From a virus: a stretch of DNA of 64,000 nt. Below the pieces are notes generated by a model. It worked only from the letters and a program-made list of their open reading frames with translations, searched no databases and was not told the origin of the DNA. Each line of letters begins with the position of its first letter. Position 1 is the first letter of the stretch. The stretch is taken from positions 1 through 64,000 of IMG/VR virus record IMGVR_UViG_3300017613_002552. The stretch is one strand, 5' to 3'. The translations under genes and the position numbers were made by a program. This document shows, piece by piece, positions 5,122-62,182 of this stretch.

Positions 5122-6252
5122 ATGGCAAATAAGCCACTTAGGGGACAGCGTGCTTTTAAGGGAATGACCGGATATGATGTCTATTTTGGAGAGAGGCCGA
5201 AGCTCATCGTCTTCGCCGATGCGCACGTTGGAGAATACAAATATCCGATCAGGGAACACATTCTCTCATCGCTAGAGCAAATTCGGAAATTCTCGGCGAA
5301 GGTAGAACCCGATGCTGTTCTATTTGCAGGCGATGCCTTCAGAACAAGGGTGCCACCTGCAAGTCAGCTTAGAGAGTTTGGCGAATACATCGACGCAATT
5401 GCCAAGACAGCAATAAACGGAATCTACATGACACCTGGGAATCATGACCTTGCCGGTCGTGGCGCGACTACACTCGATGTATTTGACTTTTACGAGAATG
5501 TACACGTTCTCAAAGAACCCGATTGCCTCGATCTTGGAGATTGGCAATTAGTCACAGTGCCCTGGTTGCCCCAAAAAGCCGCTGCGTCATTCGGCGCAGA
5601 TGGTGAAAGCACACACGGGGCAATAGAAATGCTCCTTCGCCTTCTGGCTTCAAAACTCGATAAAGAAAAAGAATCGATTCTGCTGGCCCACGCCTCTGCC
5701 CTTGGCGGGACGATGGGCAGTGAAACCTCAACACTCATCACTTCTGATGTATTGTGGCCCTCCGGCTGGTTCAAAATGTTCGGGACCTGCTTCCTTGGTC
5801 ATCTGCACAGGCCACAAACAGTGCCCGGCACAGATAACGCTCACTACACCGGTTCGATCTGTCCCGTTTCCTTCAATGAAACCGAGCAAGAAAAATCATT
5901 CATCTACTTTCACGATGGAGTCGTCGAGCGCATCCCGCTAAAAACACCCAAGTTCATCCAGGCAGAAGTCAGTGAGCTTGGGGAGATCGAAGAAGATAAG
6001 AACGCATTCTTGCAGATCAAGGTCAGGCACGACGAAGAGGAACCTGACACAATACCAAAGTGTGCATGGTATGAAATCGTAACCATCCCGCCGAAAAGAG
6101 ATCAACGACAAAGACTTTCTTCGGATGACGCCATGAAAATGACAACAGAGGATGCACTAAAAAGATATATGGAATTGGAAGACGTGCCGCAGGAGTTAAT
6201 GCAGGGAGCACTTGCCCTTGCAGAAAAATTATTAGATGAGGAGGAAAAATGA
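5122..6252 (+). CDS. sbcD: SbcD/Mre11-type nuclease subunit
   Basis: 376 residues, a calcineurin-like metallophosphoesterase. Metal motifs in order: DAH (33-35), GD (70-71), GNHD (106-109), a lone His near 190 (LLAHAS) and GHLH (226-229), all in the usual SbcD/Mre11 spacing. The cap and Rad50-binding region follows. In the family this subunit, with the SbcC/Rad50 ATPase, opens hairpins and trims protein-blocked ends. The partner gene is at 12881, about 7 kb downstream on the same strand, as in T4 gp47/gp46 and other phage systems. Start ATG follows AAAAAAGGAGG. It overlaps the next gene by ATGA. Confidence 0.9.
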   Translation: MANKPLRGQRAFKGMTGYDVYFGERPKLIVFADAHVGEYKYPIREHILSSLEQIRKFSAKVEPDAVLFAGDAFRTRVPPASQLREFGEYIDAIAKTAINGIYMTPGNHDLAGRGATTLDVFDFYENVHVLKEPDCLDLGDWQLVTVPWLPQKAAASFGADGESTHGAIEMLLRLLASKLDKEKESILLAHASALGGTMGSETSTLITSDVLWPSGWFKMFGTCFLGHLHRPQTVPGTDNAHYTGSICPVSFNETEQEKSFIYFHDGVVERIPLKTPKFIQAEVSELGEIEEDKNAFLQIKVRHDEEEPDTIPKCAWYEIVTIPPKRDQRQRLSSDDAMKMTTEDALKRYMELEDVPQELMQGALALAEKLLDEEEK

Positions 6253-12760: not shown

Positions 12761-12884
12761 TACCGAGAAAAAGGCAGCGATAATTATAGAGGAGTTCATT
12801 AGGGCACTAATCGATCTCCTCTGTAAAGGAAGAGCAATAATCGTACTGCTGATTTTCACGCTATCCGTCTGGAGGTACGCATGA
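12732..12884 (+). CDS. Small membrane protein between DUF932 and sbcC genes
   Basis: 50 residues, ATG 12732 inside the end of the DUF932 gene in another frame. The N-terminus is hydrophilic; residues about 33-46 are hydrophobic (AIIVLLIFTLSVW) with positive residues on both sides. Its stop forms ATGA with the sbcC start, and the sbcC ribosome site (GGAGGT) is inside it, the same coupling used by neighbouring genes. No clear ribosome site of its own is seen, so the exact start is uncertain. Without this frame the 120-base gap would be unexplained. Confidence 0.5.
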   Translation: MPTTKSSKNDTEKKAAIIIEEFIRALIDLLCKGRAIIVLLIFTLSVWRYA

Positions 12885-15394
12885 GGCCAACGCGCATCCA
12901 ATTGATCAACTTTATGAGCTACAAGAGGGCAGACATTGACTTGTCTGCCCTCCGCACCGTGGCAATCGTCGGTGAGAATGGTGCCGGAAAGAGCACTATC
13001 CTACAAGCGGTTACATACTGTCTCTGGGGAAAAGTGCGGACAGCATCTCACAATGACGTTGTACGGCGCGGAACGACCAAGTGTTCAGTCCGGCTGGACT
13101 TTGAGCACGATGGTCAGTCCTACCAGGTCACTCGCCGGAGAGACCTTCACGGCAACGGAAGCAGCGATCTTGAGATTGCCCTGCTGGATGGTGAGGTTCC
13201 ATACCCACTCACTGGTCCAACTATTCGAGAGACACAGGGAGTAATCAATGGTGTCCTTGGGCTATCATACGATGTCTTTGTAAGCTCTACCCTGCTCCAA
13301 CAGGGCGAAGCTGGAAAGTTTTCAAACGCAAGACCGGGCGAAAGGAAGGATTTACTAGGGCAAATACTTGACCTTGGCTCTCTTGCTACAATAGAAAAAG
13401 GGGCAAGGGTAGCGCTCACAACTTCAAATGCCGCTTTCAGAACCCTTGCCACGCTGCTTGATACAGCAAAGGAAAGAGCCATCAATGCAGAAGGCGGCGA
13501 AGAGGACCTGGCCCAATCTACCGAATGGCTTAATAGTACCGAGCTAGATATCATCGTTGCCAGGGATCATCTAAAACAGCTACAGCTTGACTTGGCAGAG
13601 GTAGCCGCCGTTACCAGAGATTTGGAATCGCTACTCACAAGCAAGGGGCACCTGAATGGCTCCCTGGCAACTATCCTTGATGAGATAGTTACCTCCTCCG
13701 AAAAGGCAAGAAACGCTGAAGGAGTAATCGAAAAAGAGGCAGAAATCAGAGCCTCATACGAGCGGTACAAGGAGCTTCGGGCAGAACTTGAAATCCTTGA
13801 CAAGAAAAAATACGCGAAGGCAAGTGCAGATATTACCAGGACACAGATCGATGTTGAGTCCGCCACGCTCAAGCAAGTGGCAGATACAGCACCGAAGCAC
13901 GAGGCCAAAATTGCGGCACTCAATGAAGAGATTGAAAGCTCAGAATCAATGCTTGCCACAATGCGGCAAGTTGTGATCGGAGCGAAAGAGAATAAGGCGC
14001 TTTCGCAAAAGGAAATTGACAGACTGAGCGATGAGATAGAGGAGGTCGCTCTTTCCAGGGCCGTTGCAACTACCACGCAACTCGCGCTACGGGAAAAGCT
14101 TGACCTGCTTTCCGATGATATCTGTCCAACGTGCGAACAGGAAATTCCAGAAGGTCACGGCGTGCTCCAAGATACAGAGGATGAAATCCTCAAACTAGAA
14201 AGTATGATTTCCGATCTTGAAGACACACTCAGAGCAGCACACGAACGCACCAGCCTCGTGCGACAAGATATTGAAAAGTTGCAAGCTGAAATCGCCAGGG
14301 ACGATAGGGCGAATGCGGCGAGAGAGGTAGAAATTGAGGGACAAGAGCGAGAAGTAGAAAGACTCACGGATGAACTCGCGGTATCACAGGATGCCGCCAA
14401 GGTTCTTTCGTCAGGCAACTTCGCCCTAGAGCTACGCACCAAGCTTCGGGGCCTAGAAGAAGAATCTCTTGGCTACAACAAAGAAGAACATGAAGGCGCA
14501 AAAAGGGAAATGGAAGAGCTTCAGGGTGCAGGGGCCGATCTTTCAGTGCTAGAGACAGCCAAATCCTCACTCGCCGAGTCCCTAGAGCTCAAAGGGAAAA
14601 AGGAACTTGCGCGAGATAAAGCGGTAGGTGAGATTGTCGCCATCGAGTATGACGAGAGAGGGCTACAGAAAAAGATTGCCAATCTGCAATGCCAGGAAGA
14701 ACTCTCAGGAAAAATAGAAGACCTGGAGCAAGGGCTACTTGACCTAGAAAACACCAAGTCCTCCGCAACCACCGCAGTAGCTCTGGCAGAGGCAAAAATC
14801 AAGGCCAGCCAGGAACTTGAAGCTCAAATCGAGAGGATGGAGTCTGAACTCGAAGAACTCAACGGGCAAGCCACCTGCGCCGATCTCCTGGTAAAAGCGG
14901 CGGGGAAAGGTGGGGCACAGGCCCTTATCGTTGAAGCTGCGCTTCCCCAGATCGAAAGAGACGCAAACGAATATCTCTCTACCATGTCTCCAAATATGAC
15001 AATCTCCCTGGAGAGCCAGAGAACAACGCAATCTGGAAGCGTGTCCGAAACATTGGATATTCGGGTGCAGTTTGACGGAATGGACGCACCCATCGAAACC
15101 CTTAGTGGCGGCGAGAGGTTCAGGAGTGACCTTGCATTGCGCCTCGCAATCGGGCAGATGCTTGCCCGGAGAAGCGGGACAGAAATGAAATTCCTGGCAA
15201 TCGATGAGGGATTTGGTAGCCAGGATACCGATGGTCAAGAGGGGATACTGGAGATCATTTCTTCTCTCTCTGCCCTCTTTGACCTAATCATGGTCATTAG
15301 TCATGTCAGCGCTGTTGCAGCGTCAATTGGCGCAGAAGGTAGCATAATCCGTGTTTCTAAGCCAGGTAACGCTTCAATGACAGAGGTAATGTAG
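12881..15394 (+). CDS. sbcC: SbcC/Rad50-type ATPase subunit
   Basis: 837 residues. Walker A GENGAGKST (31-39), long coiled coils, zinc hook CPTC (415-418) at the midpoint, signature LSGGER (741-746), Walker B ending in DE (775-776) and the H-loop in VISHVS. This is a complete SMC-like Rad50 homologue; two ATPase heads bind the SbcD nuclease and the hook joins coiled coils. Together with the sbcD product at 5122 it processes DNA ends and hairpins during replication or recombination. It begins in the ATGA overlap and ends in TAGTG with the next gene. Two CGGCGAGAG copies lie in it. Confidence 0.95.
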   Translation: MRPTRIQLINFMSYKRADIDLSALRTVAIVGENGAGKSTILQAVTYCLWGKVRTASHNDVVRRGTTKCSVRLDFEHDGQSYQVTRRRDLHGNGSSDLEIALLDGEVPYPLTGPTIRETQGVINGVLGLSYDVFVSSTLLQQGEAGKFSNARPGERKDLLGQILDLGSLATIEKGARVALTTSNAAFRTLATLLDTAKERAINAEGGEEDLAQSTEWLNSTELDIIVARDHLKQLQLDLAEVAAVTRDLESLLTSKGHLNGSLATILDEIVTSSEKARNAEGVIEKEAEIRASYERYKELRAELEILDKKKYAKASADITRTQIDVESATLKQVADTAPKHEAKIAALNEEIESSESMLATMRQVVIGAKENKALSQKEIDRLSDEIEEVALSRAVATTTQLALREKLDLLSDDICPTCEQEIPEGHGVLQDTEDEILKLESMISDLEDTLRAAHERTSLVRQDIEKLQAEIARDDRANAAREVEIEGQEREVERLTDELAVSQDAAKVLSSGNFALELRTKLRGLEEESLGYNKEEHEGAKREMEELQGAGADLSVLETAKSSLAESLELKGKKELARDKAVGEIVAIEYDERGLQKKIANLQCQEELSGKIEDLEQGLLDLENTKSSATTAVALAEAKIKASQELEAQIERMESELEELNGQATCADLLVKAAGKGGAQALIVEAALPQIERDANEYLSTMSPNMTISLESQRTTQSGSVSETLDIRVQFDGMDAPIETLSGGERFRSDLALRLAIGQMLARRSGTEMKFLAIDEGFGSQDTDGQEGILEIISSLSALFDLIMVISHVSAVAASIGAEGSIIRVSKPGNASMTEVM

Positions 15395-40046: not shown

Positions 40047-40583
40047 CTACTCGAACGGCCTGCTGCTAATTTCTTCTTGCGGACCCCTCAATTCATGATT
40101 TTCCTCTTCAAGTACTTCCATCCGCCCACGCAGGGTCTCTATTTCTCTTGATTGGGTTTCTATTTCTTCTGATTGCCTTTCTTTCTCCTCCCTTTCTTCA
40201 GCTAGTTTTTTACCAAGCTCTTTAACAGTAGCAGTGAGTAACGTATTTCTTTGCTGCTCCCTCCCAAGCTTCGCTTTTACTTCTCCGAGTTCACTCTCAA
40301 GCTTGCTTTTTGTTTCCGCCAAATCCTCCTTCAGTGCCGTAACCTGATCTTGTAGATCATCTATTATGCCACTCTGTGCTGTAACTTTCACAGCATCGGT
40401 TTCAGCATCGACTTTCTCTGTCTCAGCATCGACTTTCTCTGTCTCAGCATCGACTTTCCTTGTCTCAGCATCGACCTTCTTTTTTTGTGACTTTGCAAGA
40501 AAATATGGAACAAGCTGACCAAGCAGTGTGATTATAATGCTGATAATGAGTGGTACAATCAGATCGGCCCATTCAATTTCCAT
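40047..40583 (-). CDS. Membrane-anchored coiled-coil protein with VDAET repeats
   Basis: 178 residues from ATG 40583. One N-terminal helix (LIVPLIISIIITLLGQLVPYFLA), then four VDAET repeats coded by a 21-bp tandem repeat, then a long Glu/Lys coiled coil (KLAEEREEKERQSEEI). Topology resembles inner-membrane spanins, and the two multi-helix neighbours resemble holins, so a lysis cassette is possible. The embedded repeat may vary in copy number among relatives. Confidence 0.55.
   Translation of the reverse strand: MEIEWADLIVPLIISIIITLLGQLVPYFLAKSQKKKVDAETRKVDAETEKVDAETEKVDAETDAVKVTAQSGIIDDLQDQVTALKEDLAETKSKLESELGEVKAKLGREQQRNTLLTATVKELGKKLAEEREEKERQSEEIETQSREIETLRGRMEVLEEENHELRGPQEEISSRPFE
40401..40483 (-). 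repeat. 21-bp tandem repeat, four imperfect units
   Basis: Units begin at about 40401, 40421, 40442 and 40463, all sharing the core CAGCATCGACTTTC with few changes. Each encodes VDAET(E/R/D)K on the minus strand, lengthening the region between the membrane helix and the coiled coil. Confidence 0.8.
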
Positions 40584-42321: not shown

Positions 42322-43913
42322 TTTTCCTCCATTTTTCTATCTTCAAAAGAAATAAAATACGCTCTTCCTTCGTGACCAACAGAGATGGACCTATTCTCTC
42401 TCAGGACAAACAGCGTTCTTTCTGCCGGTGTCACGATATCCAAATCTACAATAGTGCCACTTGTTTGAATTGCACTGACGACTTGAAGATCAATTCCTGC
42501 AATAGAAGCTACTGTGGCAAGAATTTCTGCAACAACAGAAGCGTTCAGGCCCAAATCAGCGCCAGCACCGGCCCGGCCAGCAATAGAGTCTGCCCTTGAT
42601 ACCGATATCGAAACACTACTCAACGCTCCAGAGGCACCACTCTCAGTCAAGCCCCTGGAGTGCCCAATCGAAAGCGAGACATCGTAGTTCAAGCCAGATG
42701 AGGCGCTTATTGCTAAAACAGTGCTTTCCACAATCGAGACGAGCGCCGACGCAAGTCCAGAACTGGACAAACCCGCCGATCTTTCGCCCAATACAGAGGC
42801 TTCAGTACTTGCTCCTGCCGAAGCAGCCATAGACTCGTAAATCGCTACGGCGAGAGAGGAGGTTGCTTGAACACCCGCCCCTTGAGAAATTGACTTCAGG
42901 GAAGAAAGCTCGCTATCTGAGAGGGCAACAGCAAGACCATCCTCACTAATGCCCTGAGTCAAGGAAAGACTGGCACTCGCCGCTAACTGGGCAAGGGCTT
43001 CCTCCGAAATACTTACAACCTTCTCAACTTGAACCCCACCAGCGACTTGACCAAGTGCGGATTGAGAAGCGGCAAATACAGAAGATAATGCAGCGTCACC
43101 AACTGACTCACCAAGTGCGGATTGAGAAGCAGTCAAAACGGAAGATAGCGCCATGTCACCAACAGACTCACCAACGCCGGATTGAGCAATTGTGGCAATT
43201 CTGGACACTGACAGCGATACTTCCACATCTTCTGATGCACTTGCAGGCTGCGTAAAACCCATGACTGGCGCAGGGTAGTAAATTGGTATGTGATCAAGGA
43301 CAGATGGCGTATTGTTCAGTGAAAGAGTGTTTCCACCTACCCGATCCTCAAGCCCCCTGATAAGGGGCCAGTAGCCAACCAAGCTCTGTGGCCTAACAAG
43401 TAATGGCGATGCTCCAGCAGCAAGAGAAGCTATTTCGGCTGCCGTCAGCGCAACATCCCAGATAGCCGCCTCTGCAATGAACCCGTTGCACCAATTCTCT
43501 GACGGAGAATACATCACCGCTCCAATGCTCACCCTATCTGCATCGGTCGGAGCCACGTCTGTAGTCTCCGAACCAGAACTACCACCATCGATATAGGCAG
43601 TCCGTGACGTATCCGAGGTAAAGACGGCTGCACCATGATGCCAAGTGTCTTTAGTGTAGCCCGTACTCGTGAGTGCAGTGTATGGATTGCCCTCGCCCCT
43701 CGCCCTTGCTGCAACCGGATCGCCAGATTCATACCCTGCTGCAATTAGTGCCCAGTAATTCTTGTTGCGATCCTTGTCGCCAAGGTAGATCAAGCCGTGG
43801 TTGTCATAGCCGACATCGATATTAAACCAGCAGGCCATTGTGAGCGGCGTATCTGTTGCCGGTGCCGCATCGACATATAGGCATTCATCTGAGCCGTTAA
43901 AAGAGTACGCCAC
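42318..43913 (-). CDS. LamG-domain virion protein with Ala/Ser helical repeats
   Basis: 531 residues. Residues 1-205 are a LamG/concanavalin-type sandwich (MAYSFNGSDECLYVDA; MACWFNIDVGYDNHGLIYLG; WHHGAAVFTSDTSRTAYIDG; GFIAEAAIWDVALTAAEIASLA). The rest is very rich in Ala, Ser and Val, with imperfect repeats of about 22 residues (TASQSALGESVGDAALSSV). The long repeat region may form an extended stalk. A surface-exposed sugar-binding virion protein is likely; it overlaps both neighbours by a few bases. Confidence 0.65.
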   Translation of the reverse strand: MAYSFNGSDECLYVDAAPATDTPLTMACWFNIDVGYDNHGLIYLGDKDRNKNYWALIAAGYESGDPVAARARGEGNPYTALTSTGYTKDTWHHGAAVFTSDTSRTAYIDGGSSGSETTDVAPTDADRVSIGAVMYSPSENWCNGFIAEAAIWDVALTAAEIASLAAGASPLLVRPQSLVGYWPLIRGLEDRVGGNTLSLNNTPSVLDHIPIYYPAPVMGFTQPASASEDVEVSLSVSRIATIAQSGVGESVGDMALSSVLTASQSALGESVGDAALSSVFAASQSALGQVAGGVQVEKVVSISEEALAQLAASASLSLTQGISEDGLAVALSDSELSSLKSISQGAGVQATSSLAVAIYESMAASAGASTEASVLGERSAGLSSSGLASALVSIVESTVLAISASSGLNYDVSLSIGHSRGLTESGASGALSSVSISVSRADSIAGRAGAGADLGLNASVVAEILATVASIAGIDLQVVSAIQTSGTIVDLDIVTPAERTLFVLRENRSISVGHEGRAYFISFEDRKMEEK

Positions 43914-58926: not shown

Positions 58927-59883
58927 ATGGAGTCTTTTAGCTTTACATGGGGCGGCGAGATGGAGGGCCTTGGTCACGTCCAGGTCTTCCGCTTCATGCT
59001 CTCAACATACGCCAGGCTTGGAATCACAAGACAGGAAATGCTTTGCATAATTCACCTTGCGAGCTATCACTACAACTCCGCAACTGGAAAGAGTAAACCA
59101 TCTCGCAGATCGATTGCCGATGAAATGGGTTACGGCAGCGAGGCGCGGATCAGTGAACTAACCAAGAGCCTCGAAAAAAAGGGAATGCTCGAAATAACGA
59201 GACGTTCCGGCGCGAGAAGTATCTACGATGGTTCCCCATTCGCAAAAAGAGCGTTTGCGCTATGGAAAAAAGACCCCTACGGAAAAGCGGACCCCTCCGT
59301 AAAACCGGATGGGACCCCTACGGAAAAGCGTACGGGACCCCTCCGCAAAAGCGTACACGAAGAAGAAGAAAAGAAGAAGAAAGAAGAAGAGGCTCCCCCC
59401 TCTTTTCAGGAAGACTTTCACATTCAAGTTTACTTCAAAGATAAGTCCGTAGACTCTATGGGCAAGGTCACATCTCCTCCGTGGTCCGTCGAGTGCCAGG
59501 AGTGTGGATCAGCGGTAAGAATAAACGCACTCGATACAGAAAAAGAATGTTTCGCCTGCGGTATTCATTCCTACTCCCTGACAAAACACAGACCAAAGGC
59601 TAAAGTGACAGTTCACCCCGCCGTTCTTGCGTACAGAAAGAAAGCTGGCAAAACACCAAATCCAGAACAGATCGCACTCATTGAGCAAACAGTGACCGAT
59701 GTCCAATTTTGGACTGAGGTTGTTTCGGGATACTTGGCGGCGGGTTGGTATGCAGGGAGCGTAGACACCATGCTCGAATACTACGACCGCAGAGAAATAC
59801 CGAAGAGGGGCGGCAAAAAGAAGGAACCAAAGAAATCACCGATTGTGAAGGAAGGCAACGTTCACATAATCAAAACAGGATAA
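58927..59883 (+). CDS. Replication initiator with internal origin (lambda O-like layout)
   Basis: 318 residues. N-terminal winged helix (LGITRQEMLCIIHLASYHYN; PSRRSIADEMGYGSEARISELTKSLEKKGMLEITRRSG) is the DnaD/lambda O type of DNA-binding domain. The middle (residues 115-155) is coded by four DNA iterons and a purine tract and is low-complexity Lys/Glu. The C-terminal part has a CQECG/CFACG zinc ribbon and a helical end that may bind helicase. Followed directly by the DnaB-like gene. Initiator and origin in one gene is as in lambda. Confidence 0.75.
   Translation: MESFSFTWGGEMEGLGHVQVFRFMLSTYARLGITRQEMLCIIHLASYHYNSATGKSKPSRRSIADEMGYGSEARISELTKSLEKKGMLEITRRSGARSIYDGSPFAKRAFALWKKDPYGKADPSVKPDGTPTEKRTGPLRKSVHEEEEKKKKEEEAPPSFQEDFHIQVYFKDKSVDSMGKVTSPPWSVECQECGSAVRINALDTEKECFACGIHSYSLTKHRPKAKVTVHPAVLAYRKKAGKTPNPEQIALIEQTVTDVQFWTEVVSGYLAAGWYAGSVDTMLEYYDRREIPKRGGKKKEPKKSPIVKEGNVHIIKTG
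59272..59392 (+). other. Likely replication origin: four 18-bp iterons plus purine tract
   Basis: Iterons at 59272-59289, 59290-59307, 59313-59330 and 59336-59353 share GACCCCT(A/C)CG(N)AAAA(G/C)CG. Starts are 18, 23 and 23 apart, so they fall in all three reading frames of the gene; conservation is therefore in the DNA. A 34-base purine-only tract (59359-59392) follows directly, as the A-rich strand follows the iterons in lambda. Confidence 0.75.
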
Positions 59884-59892
59884 GGAGAAGGA

Positions 59893-60912
59893 ATGAGTAC
59901 ATTTCAAATCCAAGATATCATCTATACATCTGATCAATTAGCAACGCAACACGTTCTGAACGCAGAAAAAATTCAGAGTGAGCCCGGAATCACGTGGGGC
60001 ATCGACGCCATAGATGCCCGTGCGCGTGGGGGAGTATTGCCAATGCGCGGCGGGGATGTGGCACTGATCGTTGGTCGCCCAGGAGACGGAAAAAGCACGA
60101 TCCTCTCTTACCTTGCCATGAATGAAGCAATGAAAATCATGGAAGCAGGTCTGGACCAAAAAGAGACCGTCATCTACGCTACCTGGGAAGGCACAGTTGA
60201 TATGATCTATGGCTCTATCATGTCTAGTGTGAGTATGCAGAACGGCAACAATGGATACACAAGTTCAGATTTTTATTGGGGCGAAGTGGACCTTGGCGTC
60301 GTACAGGCAAACGTAGCTATTCATGGAATTCTCCCAATCACCATGATAGGCTTTTCTACATTCAGAAAAAACCCAAGTATTAGGCTCACGCTCGATGTTC
60401 TCCTTGGCGCAATCCGAGCCATCCAGCAAGGAAAAGGCATAGCGAAAAGGAAAGTCACAATGGTTTGTGCCGACTACCTGCAACTTATTCCGTGCGCCGA
60501 CAATGTTGAGCGCACAACACAGGTCTCCAGAGCAATTGAGGGTGCAAAGCTTGTTGGAATAGATATAGATGCACCCTTCTACCTGGGCGCACAGGCGCAC
60601 AGGCGCGTAGATGACTATGGCGTGAAACTGGCAAGGATGAACGATGTTCAGTGGTCTTCCCAGGCAGAGCAGCACACAGATAAACAGTTTTCCATTTGGA
60701 GGCCCTGGAGAACCGAGGATGTTCCACAAGTTACGGCGAATGAGGCCGTTCAGATTGAAGTGCATGGGAGAAGGTACGATCTGACTCAGCAGCTACTCTT
60801 TATGGAAATGCTGAAACAGCGCGGAGATAGCGGACGACATCTTTGGGCACTCTACCTTCGCCCAGAGCTTCTGCGTCTCGCAGAATTCGAGATCGACATT
60901 GAGGAGGTATGA
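59893..60912 (+). CDS. dnaB: Replicative helicase, DnaB-like C-terminal domain
   Basis: 339 residues, ATG after AAGGAGAAGG. RecA-fold core with Walker A GRPGDGKST (61-69), then VIYATWEGTVDMIYGSI, Walker B-like MVCADYLQLIP and GAQAHRR (arginine/sensor region), matching DnaB-family helicases. The N-terminal domain is short, so the primase- and loader-binding collar is reduced. It unwinds DNA at the fork and probably is loaded by the initiator upstream. ATGA overlap with primase gene. Confidence 0.8.
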   Translation: MSTFQIQDIIYTSDQLATQHVLNAEKIQSEPGITWGIDAIDARARGGVLPMRGGDVALIVGRPGDGKSTILSYLAMNEAMKIMEAGLDQKETVIYATWEGTVDMIYGSIMSSVSMQNGNNGYTSSDFYWGEVDLGVVQANVAIHGILPITMIGFSTFRKNPSIRLTLDVLLGAIRAIQQGKGIAKRKVTMVCADYLQLIPCADNVERTTQVSRAIEGAKLVGIDIDAPFYLGAQAHRRVDDYGVKLARMNDVQWSSQAEQHTDKQFSIWRPWRTEDVPQVTANEAVQIEVHGRRYDLTQQLLFMEMLKQRGDSGRHLWALYLRPELLRLAEFEIDIEEV

Positions 60913-61838
60913 CGGTGATTGATGCAGTTGAAATTGCAGCGAGGCACTTTCAGGTCAATTTCATCCCAGATGGCAGAGGGGAATTCAGGAGCGACGGCGG
61001 TTGCCCCTGGTGTGGGGATGGCGGCAAGGGGCGACACTCACGCCGGTTTAAGTTGTTTGTCAACGGCAGATCAGGGCCAAGGGTTTGGTGCCGCTCCTGC
61101 GGCAAGAAAGCATTCATTGACTCCTTAGATAAACAGAAGCCCCTCACAGCAGAGGAACGGCTCGTTCTCAAAAAAGCAGCAGAAGAACGGCGAGCGAGGG
61201 AGCTTGCTGACCAAATAGATGCGCTTGAACGAATCAAGTCAATGGACGTTCATCTTCGTTATCACGAGGCGTTGACGCCAAGTGCCTATGAGTACTGGAT
61301 AACGCAGGGCATCTCCCCAAGCTCCATGAATCACTATAAACTTGGGTTTTGCGACAAGTGCCCAACAGCGCCTTACTCCTCATCTCACACGATCCCCGTT
61401 GTGTGGCGCGACGAGTTGTGGAACGTCAGGCATGTTCTGACGAACCCAAACGGACAAGGGAAGTACCGGCCACAAATGGGAGGGCTGCCCATTACACTCT
61501 TCAACGCCGATATGCTTGACATCGGCGGGGAAGAGTGTATGCTTGTAGAGGGGGAAAAGAAGGCAATGGTAGTCCAGGAGAGGACAGGAATCCCCACAAT
61601 TGGAACGATGGGCAAGCAGGTTTTTCTCCCTCACTGGACCAAGTACTTCGATGACTACAAAACTGTATACGTTGCCTTCGATCCAGATGCCTACGAGGAG
61701 GGTTTAAGGGTTGCGTCTCTCCTGAATGGCAAATCGAGACTCGCTTCAATCCCTGTGAAGCCGGACGACTTTTTTGTCTTGCACGGCGGGACCGTGGATG
61801 GATTCAGAAAGTTCCTCGATCTCGCTAGACCGGTATGA
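60909..61838 (+). CDS. DnaG-like primase with zinc finger and Toprim
   Basis: 309 residues. N-terminal zinc site C32, C35, H43, C61, C64 (CPWCGDGG ... VWCRSCG); Toprim core with VEGEKKAM (213-220, catalytic Glu 214) and AFDPDAYEEG (Asp 258 and 260). It lacks a full RNA polymerase domain of bacterial DnaG, like compact phage primases. Coupled to the helicase by an ATGA overlap, so both subunits likely work together at the fork. Confidence 0.8.
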   Translation: MTVIDAVEIAARHFQVNFIPDGRGEFRSDGGCPWCGDGGKGRHSRRFKLFVNGRSGPRVWCRSCGKKAFIDSLDKQKPLTAEERLVLKKAAEERRARELADQIDALERIKSMDVHLRYHEALTPSAYEYWITQGISPSSMNHYKLGFCDKCPTAPYSSSHTIPVVWRDELWNVRHVLTNPNGQGKYRPQMGGLPITLFNADMLDIGGEECMLVEGEKKAMVVQERTGIPTIGTMGKQVFLPHWTKYFDDYKTVYVAFDPDAYEEGLRVASLLNGKSRLASIPVKPDDFFVLHGGTVDGFRKFLDLARPV

Positions 61839-62182
61839 AATCGAGGCCAGTAGAGCTTAAAAGTACAACTACAGAGATACAAACGCCATCCGGCGATATC
61901 TTTGTCACGCTCGGTTATAGGAGCGAGGAATTATTTGAAATCATTGTCAACGGCGGAAAGAGGGGGTCTGAAGTCTATGCCTTTACCGAGGCGCTGTGCA
62001 GGCTAATGAACATAATTTTGAGACTAGAGGGCCATGAAGATAGTACCGAGAGAGTTTGGGAGATCGTAGGGCAGTTAGGTGGTATCGGCGGCTCGCGTCA
62101 GTTTGCGCTTGGCGACGATGGCCCAAGGTCTCTACCAGATGCCATAGCAATACTGCTAGAAAAGAAGGTTCAAAATGGATGA
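61835..62182 (+). CDS. Stand-alone TSCPD-domain protein (NrdJ C-terminal-like)
   Basis: 115 residues in an ATGA overlap with the primase. GDIFVTLGYRSEELFEIIVNGGKRGSEVYAF and ALCRLMNIILRLEG, then LGGIGGSRQFALG and SLPDAIAILL match the TSCPD domain otherwise seen at the C-terminus of B12-dependent ribonucleotide reductase. The usual Cys pair for reduction is absent. It stands alone within the replication block, so a role in nucleotide supply or regulation is likely but unproven. Confidence 0.7.
   Translation: MKSRPVELKSTTTEIQTPSGDIFVTLGYRSEELFEIIVNGGKRGSEVYAFTEALCRLMNIILRLEGHEDSTERVWEIVGQLGGIGGSRQFALGDDGPRSLPDAIAILLEKKVQNG

What the first reader, a model, noticed from the sequence alone, without database searches (positions are those of the whole stretch)
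59272..59392. Lambda-like origin hidden in the initiator gene: iterons read in all three frames
Four 18-bp repeats GACCCCT(A/C)CG-AAAA-CG are spaced 18, 23 and 23 apart. Because the spacings are not all multiples of three they encode DPYGKA, DPSVKP, TPTEKR-type and PLRKS-type peptides, so selection acts on DNA. A 34-base purine tract follows, then helicase and primase genes. This is the layout of lambda ori within gene O, yet the initiator has a different domain make-up (C-terminal zinc ribbon).
Basis: partly seen in the sequence, partly recalled or inferred. Interest (0 to 1): 0.87.

Follow-up and report, generated by a model that had tools for sequence, protein, structure and literature searches.

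The report
Phage replication origin inside initiator gene
The four repeats are real and almost certainly are the sites where this virus's replication-starting protein binds, but placing such sites inside the gene for that protein, in shifting reading frames, is the textbook arrangement of phage lambda and is widespread in other phages, so this is a new example of a known kind.

Summary
Four 18-bp direct repeats, GACCCCTMCGNAAAANCG, lie at 59272, 59290, 59313 and 59336 inside the ORF 58927-59883. They fall in codon frames 0, 0, 2, 1, are followed by a 34-nt purine run (59359-59392, the longest in the window), and then by helicase and primase genes. Synonymous recoding of the same protein never gives such repeats (0 of 20,000), so selection acts on the DNA.

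The ORF is a phage initiator: its N-terminal winged-helix domain scores with DnaD_N and with PHROG initiation/O-like families. The best reading is an iteron origin inside the initiator gene, coded by a linker after the DNA-binding domain.

This is a known kind. Lambda's annotated iterons fall in frames 0, 2, 2, 1 of gene O, at almost the same distance from the start codon (348 versus 345 nt), spaced 20, 24, 23. SPP1, 80alpha and pSK41 are precedents in the literature. In a survey of 99 related initiator genes, 63 carry significant repeats at the same place, 59 of them in more than one frame.

Differences from lambda: the repeats are not palindromic, the initiator is not a Phage_rep_O protein, and it has a CxxC-x14-CxxC motif. 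Origin activity itself is not shown.

The parts
58927..59883 (+). Replication initiator gene, 318 aa
   Evidence: Pfam DnaD_N E 2.6e-7 above its cut-off; PHROG 270 'replication initiation protein' 2e-6, 391 and 345 'replication initiation O-like'
58999..59262 (+). Winged helix-turn-helix DNA-binding domain, residues about 25-112
   Evidence: AlphaFold2 model confident mainly over residues 31-90; LexA-type and DnaD/DnaB/initiator winged helices among structural matches
59234..59247 (+). Possible degenerate fifth iteron (CCCCATTCGCAAAA)
   Evidence: 11 of 14 match to the core; weak
59272..59289 (+). Iteron 1, GACCCCTACGGAAAAGCG, frame 0
59290..59307 (+). Iteron 2, GACCCCTCCGTAAAACCG, frame 0
59313..59330 (+). 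Iteron 3, GACCCCTACGGAAAAGCG, frame 2
59336..59353 (+). Iteron 4, GACCCCTCCGCAAAAGCG, frame 1
59359..59392 (+). 34-nt A+G tract, candidate strand-opening region
   Evidence: longest purine run in the window; same position as lambda's AT-rich tract and the A-rich tract of relatives; function inferred
59494..59559 (+). CxxC-x14-CxxC motif, possible zinc knuckle, residues 190-211
   Evidence: sequence motif; model confidence too low to confirm a fold
59893..60912 (+). DnaB-like helicase, C-terminal domain only (339 aa)
   Evidence: Pfam DnaB_C 2.1e-10; PHROG 19 4e-19
60909..61838 (+). DNA primase (309 aa)
   Evidence: PHROG 47 1.8e-27; tblastn to mycobacteriophage primases at about 30% identity

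Best explanation
This is a theta-type phage replication origin lying inside its own initiator gene. The winged-helix N-terminal domain of the initiator most likely binds the four direct 18-bp iterons encoded just downstream of it, the filled array opens the adjacent A-rich tract, and the phage's own DnaB-like helicase and primase, encoded next, are loaded there. The iterons sit in the stretch that codes for a flexible linker, so the protein tolerates peptides read in any frame while the DNA sites and their spacing of about two helical turns are kept. Shown here: the repeats, selection on the DNA, the wHTH initiator identity, the gene order and the same layout in distant relatives. Inferred: binding, strand opening, helicase loading and origin activity.
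For: Repeats far exceed synonymous recoding. Initiator families; a confident wHTH ends before the iterons, and a low-confidence stretch starts there, as expected of a linker. Helicase and primase are adjacent. The two-copy core pattern found 5 viral contigs of 2.9 million, and in all 5 it lies directly behind a wHTH-like domain in an initiator-like gene. Skulduggery gp49, annotated 'replication initiation protein' and followed by a DnaC-like loader, has CCCCTTCGGAAAA four times, spacing 20, 22, 23, in mixed frames. Survey: 63 of 99 distinct genes pass the recoding test, 59 of 63 in more than one frame, 60 of 78 spacings are 22-24 nt, and AT content rises from 57% to 71% in the next 50 nt. Lambda: iterons at offsets 348, 368, 392, 415 in gene O, frames 0, 2, 2, 1. 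BK5-T's record marks a repeat region inside its initiator gene. Experimental precedents: SPP1 gp38 binds oriL inside gene 38 (PMC6316719); 80alpha ORF20 cannot be complemented in trans, ori taken to be embedded (PMC5499656); pSK41 Rep (319 aa) binds four Rep boxes in its own gene, where the encoded segment is a linker (PMC5703833).
Against: No close homologue of this initiator was found in viral, genome or phage collections, so conservation in true close relatives is untested. The GC-skew extremum is not at 59.3 kb. The purine tract is only moderately AT-rich (58% over 50 nt against 51% for the gene). The first iteron spacing, 18, departs from the usual 20-24. The wHTH fold is also that of transcription regulators.
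Confidence: 0.9

Rival explanations
1. The repeats are operator sites: the wHTH protein is a transcription regulator that binds within its own gene to control the replication operon, and the origin lies elsewhere.
For: The wHTH resembles LexA and MarR-like regulators; skew does not mark this site.
Against: Better-scoring families are replication initiators and DnaD_N; helicase and primase follow directly; a repeat array mid-gene is the initiator layout in lambda, SPP1, 80alpha and pSK41. No second array of the core was found in the 68.9-kb record.
Confidence: 0.06
2. The repeats are selected as protein: a repetitive charged linker peptide with no DNA function.
For: The stretch encodes a K-, P- and E-rich, probably disordered linker.
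Against: The copies lie in three frames and encode different peptides, and synonymous recoding never reproduces the DNA repeats.
Confidence: 0.01
3. The repeats are a chance or recent tandem duplication without function.
For: Tandem Repeats Finder reports the block as imperfect tandem arrays of period 18 and 23.
Against: Spacers differ in length (0, 5 and 5 nt between copies) while the cores stay nearly identical, and the same core recurs at the same gene position in unrelated phages.
Confidence: 0.03

Closest known systems
Phage lambda ori inside gene O
   Same: Four 18-bp iterons in the middle of the initiator gene, offset 348 (here 345), spacing 20, 24, 23 (here 18, 23, 23), iterons in all three frames, A-rich tract right behind
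   Different: Lambda iterons are imperfect palindromes (two of the four at 12-14 of 17 self-complementary; here at most 8 of 16); O is Phage_rep_O, not found here; lambda next encodes the loader P, here helicase and primase follow
HTH_36-type phage initiators (PHROG 270; e.g. Pseudomonas phage Skulduggery gp49, Lactococcus phage BK5-T ORF49, Staphylococcus phage 77)
   Same: N-terminal wHTH, direct iterons of about 22-24 nt spacing in shifting frames straight after it, A-rich tract, replication neighbours; Skulduggery shares the core CCCCT-CGGAAAA
   Different: No BLAST-level similarity of the window protein to phage records; window has CxxC-x14-CxxC (1 of 113 surveyed) and a GAA/AAG tract instead of AATAATAC repeats
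SPP1 gp38/oriL and Staphylococcus phage 80alpha ORF20
   Same: Origin-binding protein whose origin lies within its own gene (PMC6316719, PMC5499656)
   Different: Firmicute phages; SPP1 has a second origin, none found here
RepA_N plasmid pSK41 Rep
   Same: 319-aa initiator, N-terminal domain binds four boxes within its own gene, the segment they encode is a linker (PMC5703833); entries titled 'Structure of initiator' (4pt7) and 4pql appear among fold matches (Z 7.3)
   Different: Plasmid, not phage; these Z values are in the common range for wHTH folds

Membership tests
Iteron origin embedded in a phage initiator gene | Three or more repeats inside the initiator ORF, beyond what its protein sequence requires | tested here: met
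   0 of 20,000 recodings reach the observed identity
Iteron origin embedded in a phage initiator gene | The gene encodes an initiator with a DNA-binding domain upstream of the iterons | tested here: met
   DnaD_N and PHROG 270/391/345 matches; wHTH model
Iteron origin embedded in a phage initiator gene | A/T-rich strand-opening tract next to the iterons | tested here: inconclusive
   A-rich purine tract present, but only 58% AT over 50 nt against 51% in the gene
Iteron origin embedded in a phage initiator gene | Replication starts there | not testable with these tools
   GC skew uninformative because it follows gene orientation
Lambda O (Phage_rep_O, PF04492) | Phage_rep_O domain | tested here: not met
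   No PF04492 match for the window protein at E 0.1, while lambda O matches at 5.7e-36
Lambda-type palindromic iterons | Iterons with imperfect dyad symmetry | tested here: not met
   Best self-complementarity 6-8 positions in the window against 8-14 in lambda
HTH_36 / PHROG 270 phage initiators | Profile match | tested here: inconclusive
   PHROG 270 E 2e-6 over residues 36-160, but no PF13730 HTH_36 match and no BLAST match
DnaD-type N-terminal domain | PF21984 above its curated cut-off | tested here: met
   31.2 bits against a cut-off of 27

The most novel reading that the evidence does not exclude
Origins embedded in wHTH phage initiators follow a shared two-part grammar: iterons phased at 22-24 nt regardless of codon frame, then a codon-phased trinucleotide tract (AATAATAC in relatives, GAA/AAG here) whose complementary strand reads TnnT, as in the DnaD recognition element of B. 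subtilis, and which the DnaD-like initiator reads as single strand to choose the strand for helicase loading. The window would be a member with a swapped tract and an added zinc motif.
Probability: 0.12. Interest if true: 0.55.

Novelty: new member of a known kind. Interest (0 to 1): 0.22.

Why it matters
It gives a testable origin and initiator for an uncultured phage with no close relatives. It also supports a general rule: in embedded phage origins the DNA phasing of iterons is kept while the codon frame is free, because the encoded linker tolerates it. The comparative set shows this across phages of Firmicutes, Pseudomonas, Cellulophaga and uncultured viruses, and lambda itself obeys it.

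Tried and rejected
Close relatives of the initiator, helicase and primase: none found in viral contigs, and none of the initiator in bacterial genomes or phage records; the primase has remote phage matches. A blastn search of the iteron block against phages found nothing. The relaxed three-copy pattern in bacterial genomes returned 37 loci that are mostly unrelated tandem repeats, so that relaxed motif alone is not specific there. One of six viral hits of the three-copy pattern (L009) showed no wHTH context. GC skew does not point to this site. No terminal repeats were found in the record with exact 15-30-nt end matches. Terminator-like hits on the minus strand over the iterons come from the repeats and the T-rich complement of the tract. 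Single-strand folding of the block is only mildly stable, z -2.0. The zinc ribbon could not be confirmed: the model is below pLDDT 50 there.

Full report
WHAT IS THERE. The window is the first 64,000 bases of a 68,942-base viral record. The gene 58927-59883 encodes 318 residues. Four 18-bp direct repeats, consensus GACCCCTMCGNAAAANCG, start at 59272, 59290, 59313 and 59336. Fifteen of 18 columns are invariant. Spacings are 18, 23 and 23, so the repeats fall in frames 0, 0, 2 and 1 and encode DPYGKA, DPSVKP, TPTEKR and GPLRKS. A weaker fifth copy may lie at 59234. A 34-nt purine run follows at 59359-59392, the longest purine or pyrimidine run in the window.

IS IT MORE THAN CHANCE. Recoding the same protein with the phage's own codon usage gave a mean pairwise identity of 52.8 of 108 and a maximum of 77 in 20,000 trials, against 96 observed. 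A free search for repeats in the gene scored 32 against a null maximum of 13. The core with at most one mismatch occurs four times in 64 kb, all here; no shuffle of 100 reached four. Selection on the DNA is therefore well supported.

WHAT THE GENE IS. The protein matches DnaD_N above its cut-off and PHROG families named replication initiation protein and replication initiation O-like. The predicted structure has a winged helix at residues about 25-112, confident mainly over 31-90, with LexA, Gram-positive DnaB/DnaD and plasmid initiator winged helices among its matches. Many unrelated winged helices score alike, so this shows the fold and not the function. From residue 114 on, most of the model is of low confidence, including the iteron-encoded stretch and the Cys motif. 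Next come a DnaB-like helicase lacking the N-terminal domain and a primase. The helicase and primase have no close relatives in viral contigs.

COMPARISON WITH LAMBDA. The lambda record annotates four iterons in gene O. I computed their offsets from the start codon as 348, 368, 392 and 415, frames 0, 2, 2 and 1. The window's are 345, 363, 386 and 409. The literature describes oriLambda as iterons plus an AT-rich tract in the middle of gene O (PMC7466680; PMC6022878). Two differences were measured: lambda iterons have dyad symmetry and these do not, and lambda O is a Phage_rep_O protein whereas this one gave no such match.

RELATIVES. Two copies of the core CCCCTMCGNAAAA within 30 bases occur in 5 viral contigs (two nearly identical). 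In all of them they lie directly behind a winged-helix-like domain in an initiator-like gene. One of these proteins led to 97 annotated phage records, many named replication initiation protein. Among ten inspected, Skulduggery has CCCCTTCGGAAAAC four times at 20, 22, 23 in mixed frames, and BK5-T has an annotated repeat region in the gene. A survey of 106 viral-contig loci plus named genes gave 99 distinct genes. In 63, repeats of three or more copies beat at least 98 of 100 recodings; 59 of these use more than one frame; 60 of 78 spacings over 33 distinct motif-and-spacing groups are 22, 23 or 24 nt. The first repeat starts at a median of 284 nt from the start codon. The 50 nt after the repeats are richer in AT than the gene in 62 of 64 cases, lambda included. 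The threshold is lenient, and the set was picked by similarity of the DNA-binding domain to a few seeds, so the fractions describe these subfamilies only.

EXPERIMENTAL PRECEDENT. SPP1 gp38 binds direct repeats of oriL inside gene 38 (PMC6316719). Phage 80alpha ORF20 is essential, cannot be complemented in trans, and with ORF21 drives autonomous replication; the authors conclude that the origin is embedded in ORF20 (PMC5499656). In plasmid pSK41 a 319-residue Rep binds four boxes in the middle of its own gene and the residues they encode act as a linker (PMC5703833). The window fits this pattern closely.

MECHANISM. Most likely the winged-helix domain binds each asymmetric iteron, the occupied array opens the neighbouring A-rich tract, and the phage helicase and primase load there. 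Binding, opening and loading are inferred. The spacing of about two helical turns suggests that bound domains face the same side, which would explain why phasing is kept at the cost of codon frame; this too is inference.

WHAT IS UNUSUAL. The CxxC-x14-CxxC motif at residues 190-211 occurs in 1 of 113 surveyed initiators, the window's own. The tract is GAA/AAG rather than the AATAATAC repeats of most relatives. Neither changes the kind of system.

VERDICT. Real, correctly interpreted in its main point, and a new member of a known kind.

Noticed in passing
Loci L059-L164, gene nt 330-480: Behind the iterons, related initiators carry a sense-strand, codon-phased motif AATAATAC, often 2-3 copies at 12 or 15 nt: 76 copies in 68 dereplicated genes against 1 on the other strand, synonymous null mean 41.6, max 56 of 200. 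Its complement reads TnnT, like the DnaD recognition element (PMC10201434).
   Followed up: partly
L007 259-1344: A viral gene with no Pfam or PHROG match has the same core in mixed frames (PYGNR, TLRKP, PTESV) followed by an E-rich stretch (EYEEEEERIENLEE), like the window; its C-terminal part also has several Cys and His.
   Followed up: partly
window 40402-40480 and 43050-43186: Tandem arrays of 21-bp units (3.8 copies, 93% match) and 60-bp units (2.3 copies) in the late region.
   Followed up: no
window 61835-62182: Small TSCPD-domain protein (2.6e-10) directly after the primase gene; the domain is known from ribonucleotide reductases (the latter from general knowledge).
   Followed up: no
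window 5122-6252 and 12881-15394: SbcD-like and SbcC-like nuclease genes (PHROG 100 and 77).
   Followed up: no
L021, L032 (Selenomonadaceae MAG contigs): Repeats with the CCT-CG-AAA core at 33-34-nt spacing in rotating frames (PTEN, PYGK, PLRK) in a possible prophage initiator gene.
   Followed up: no
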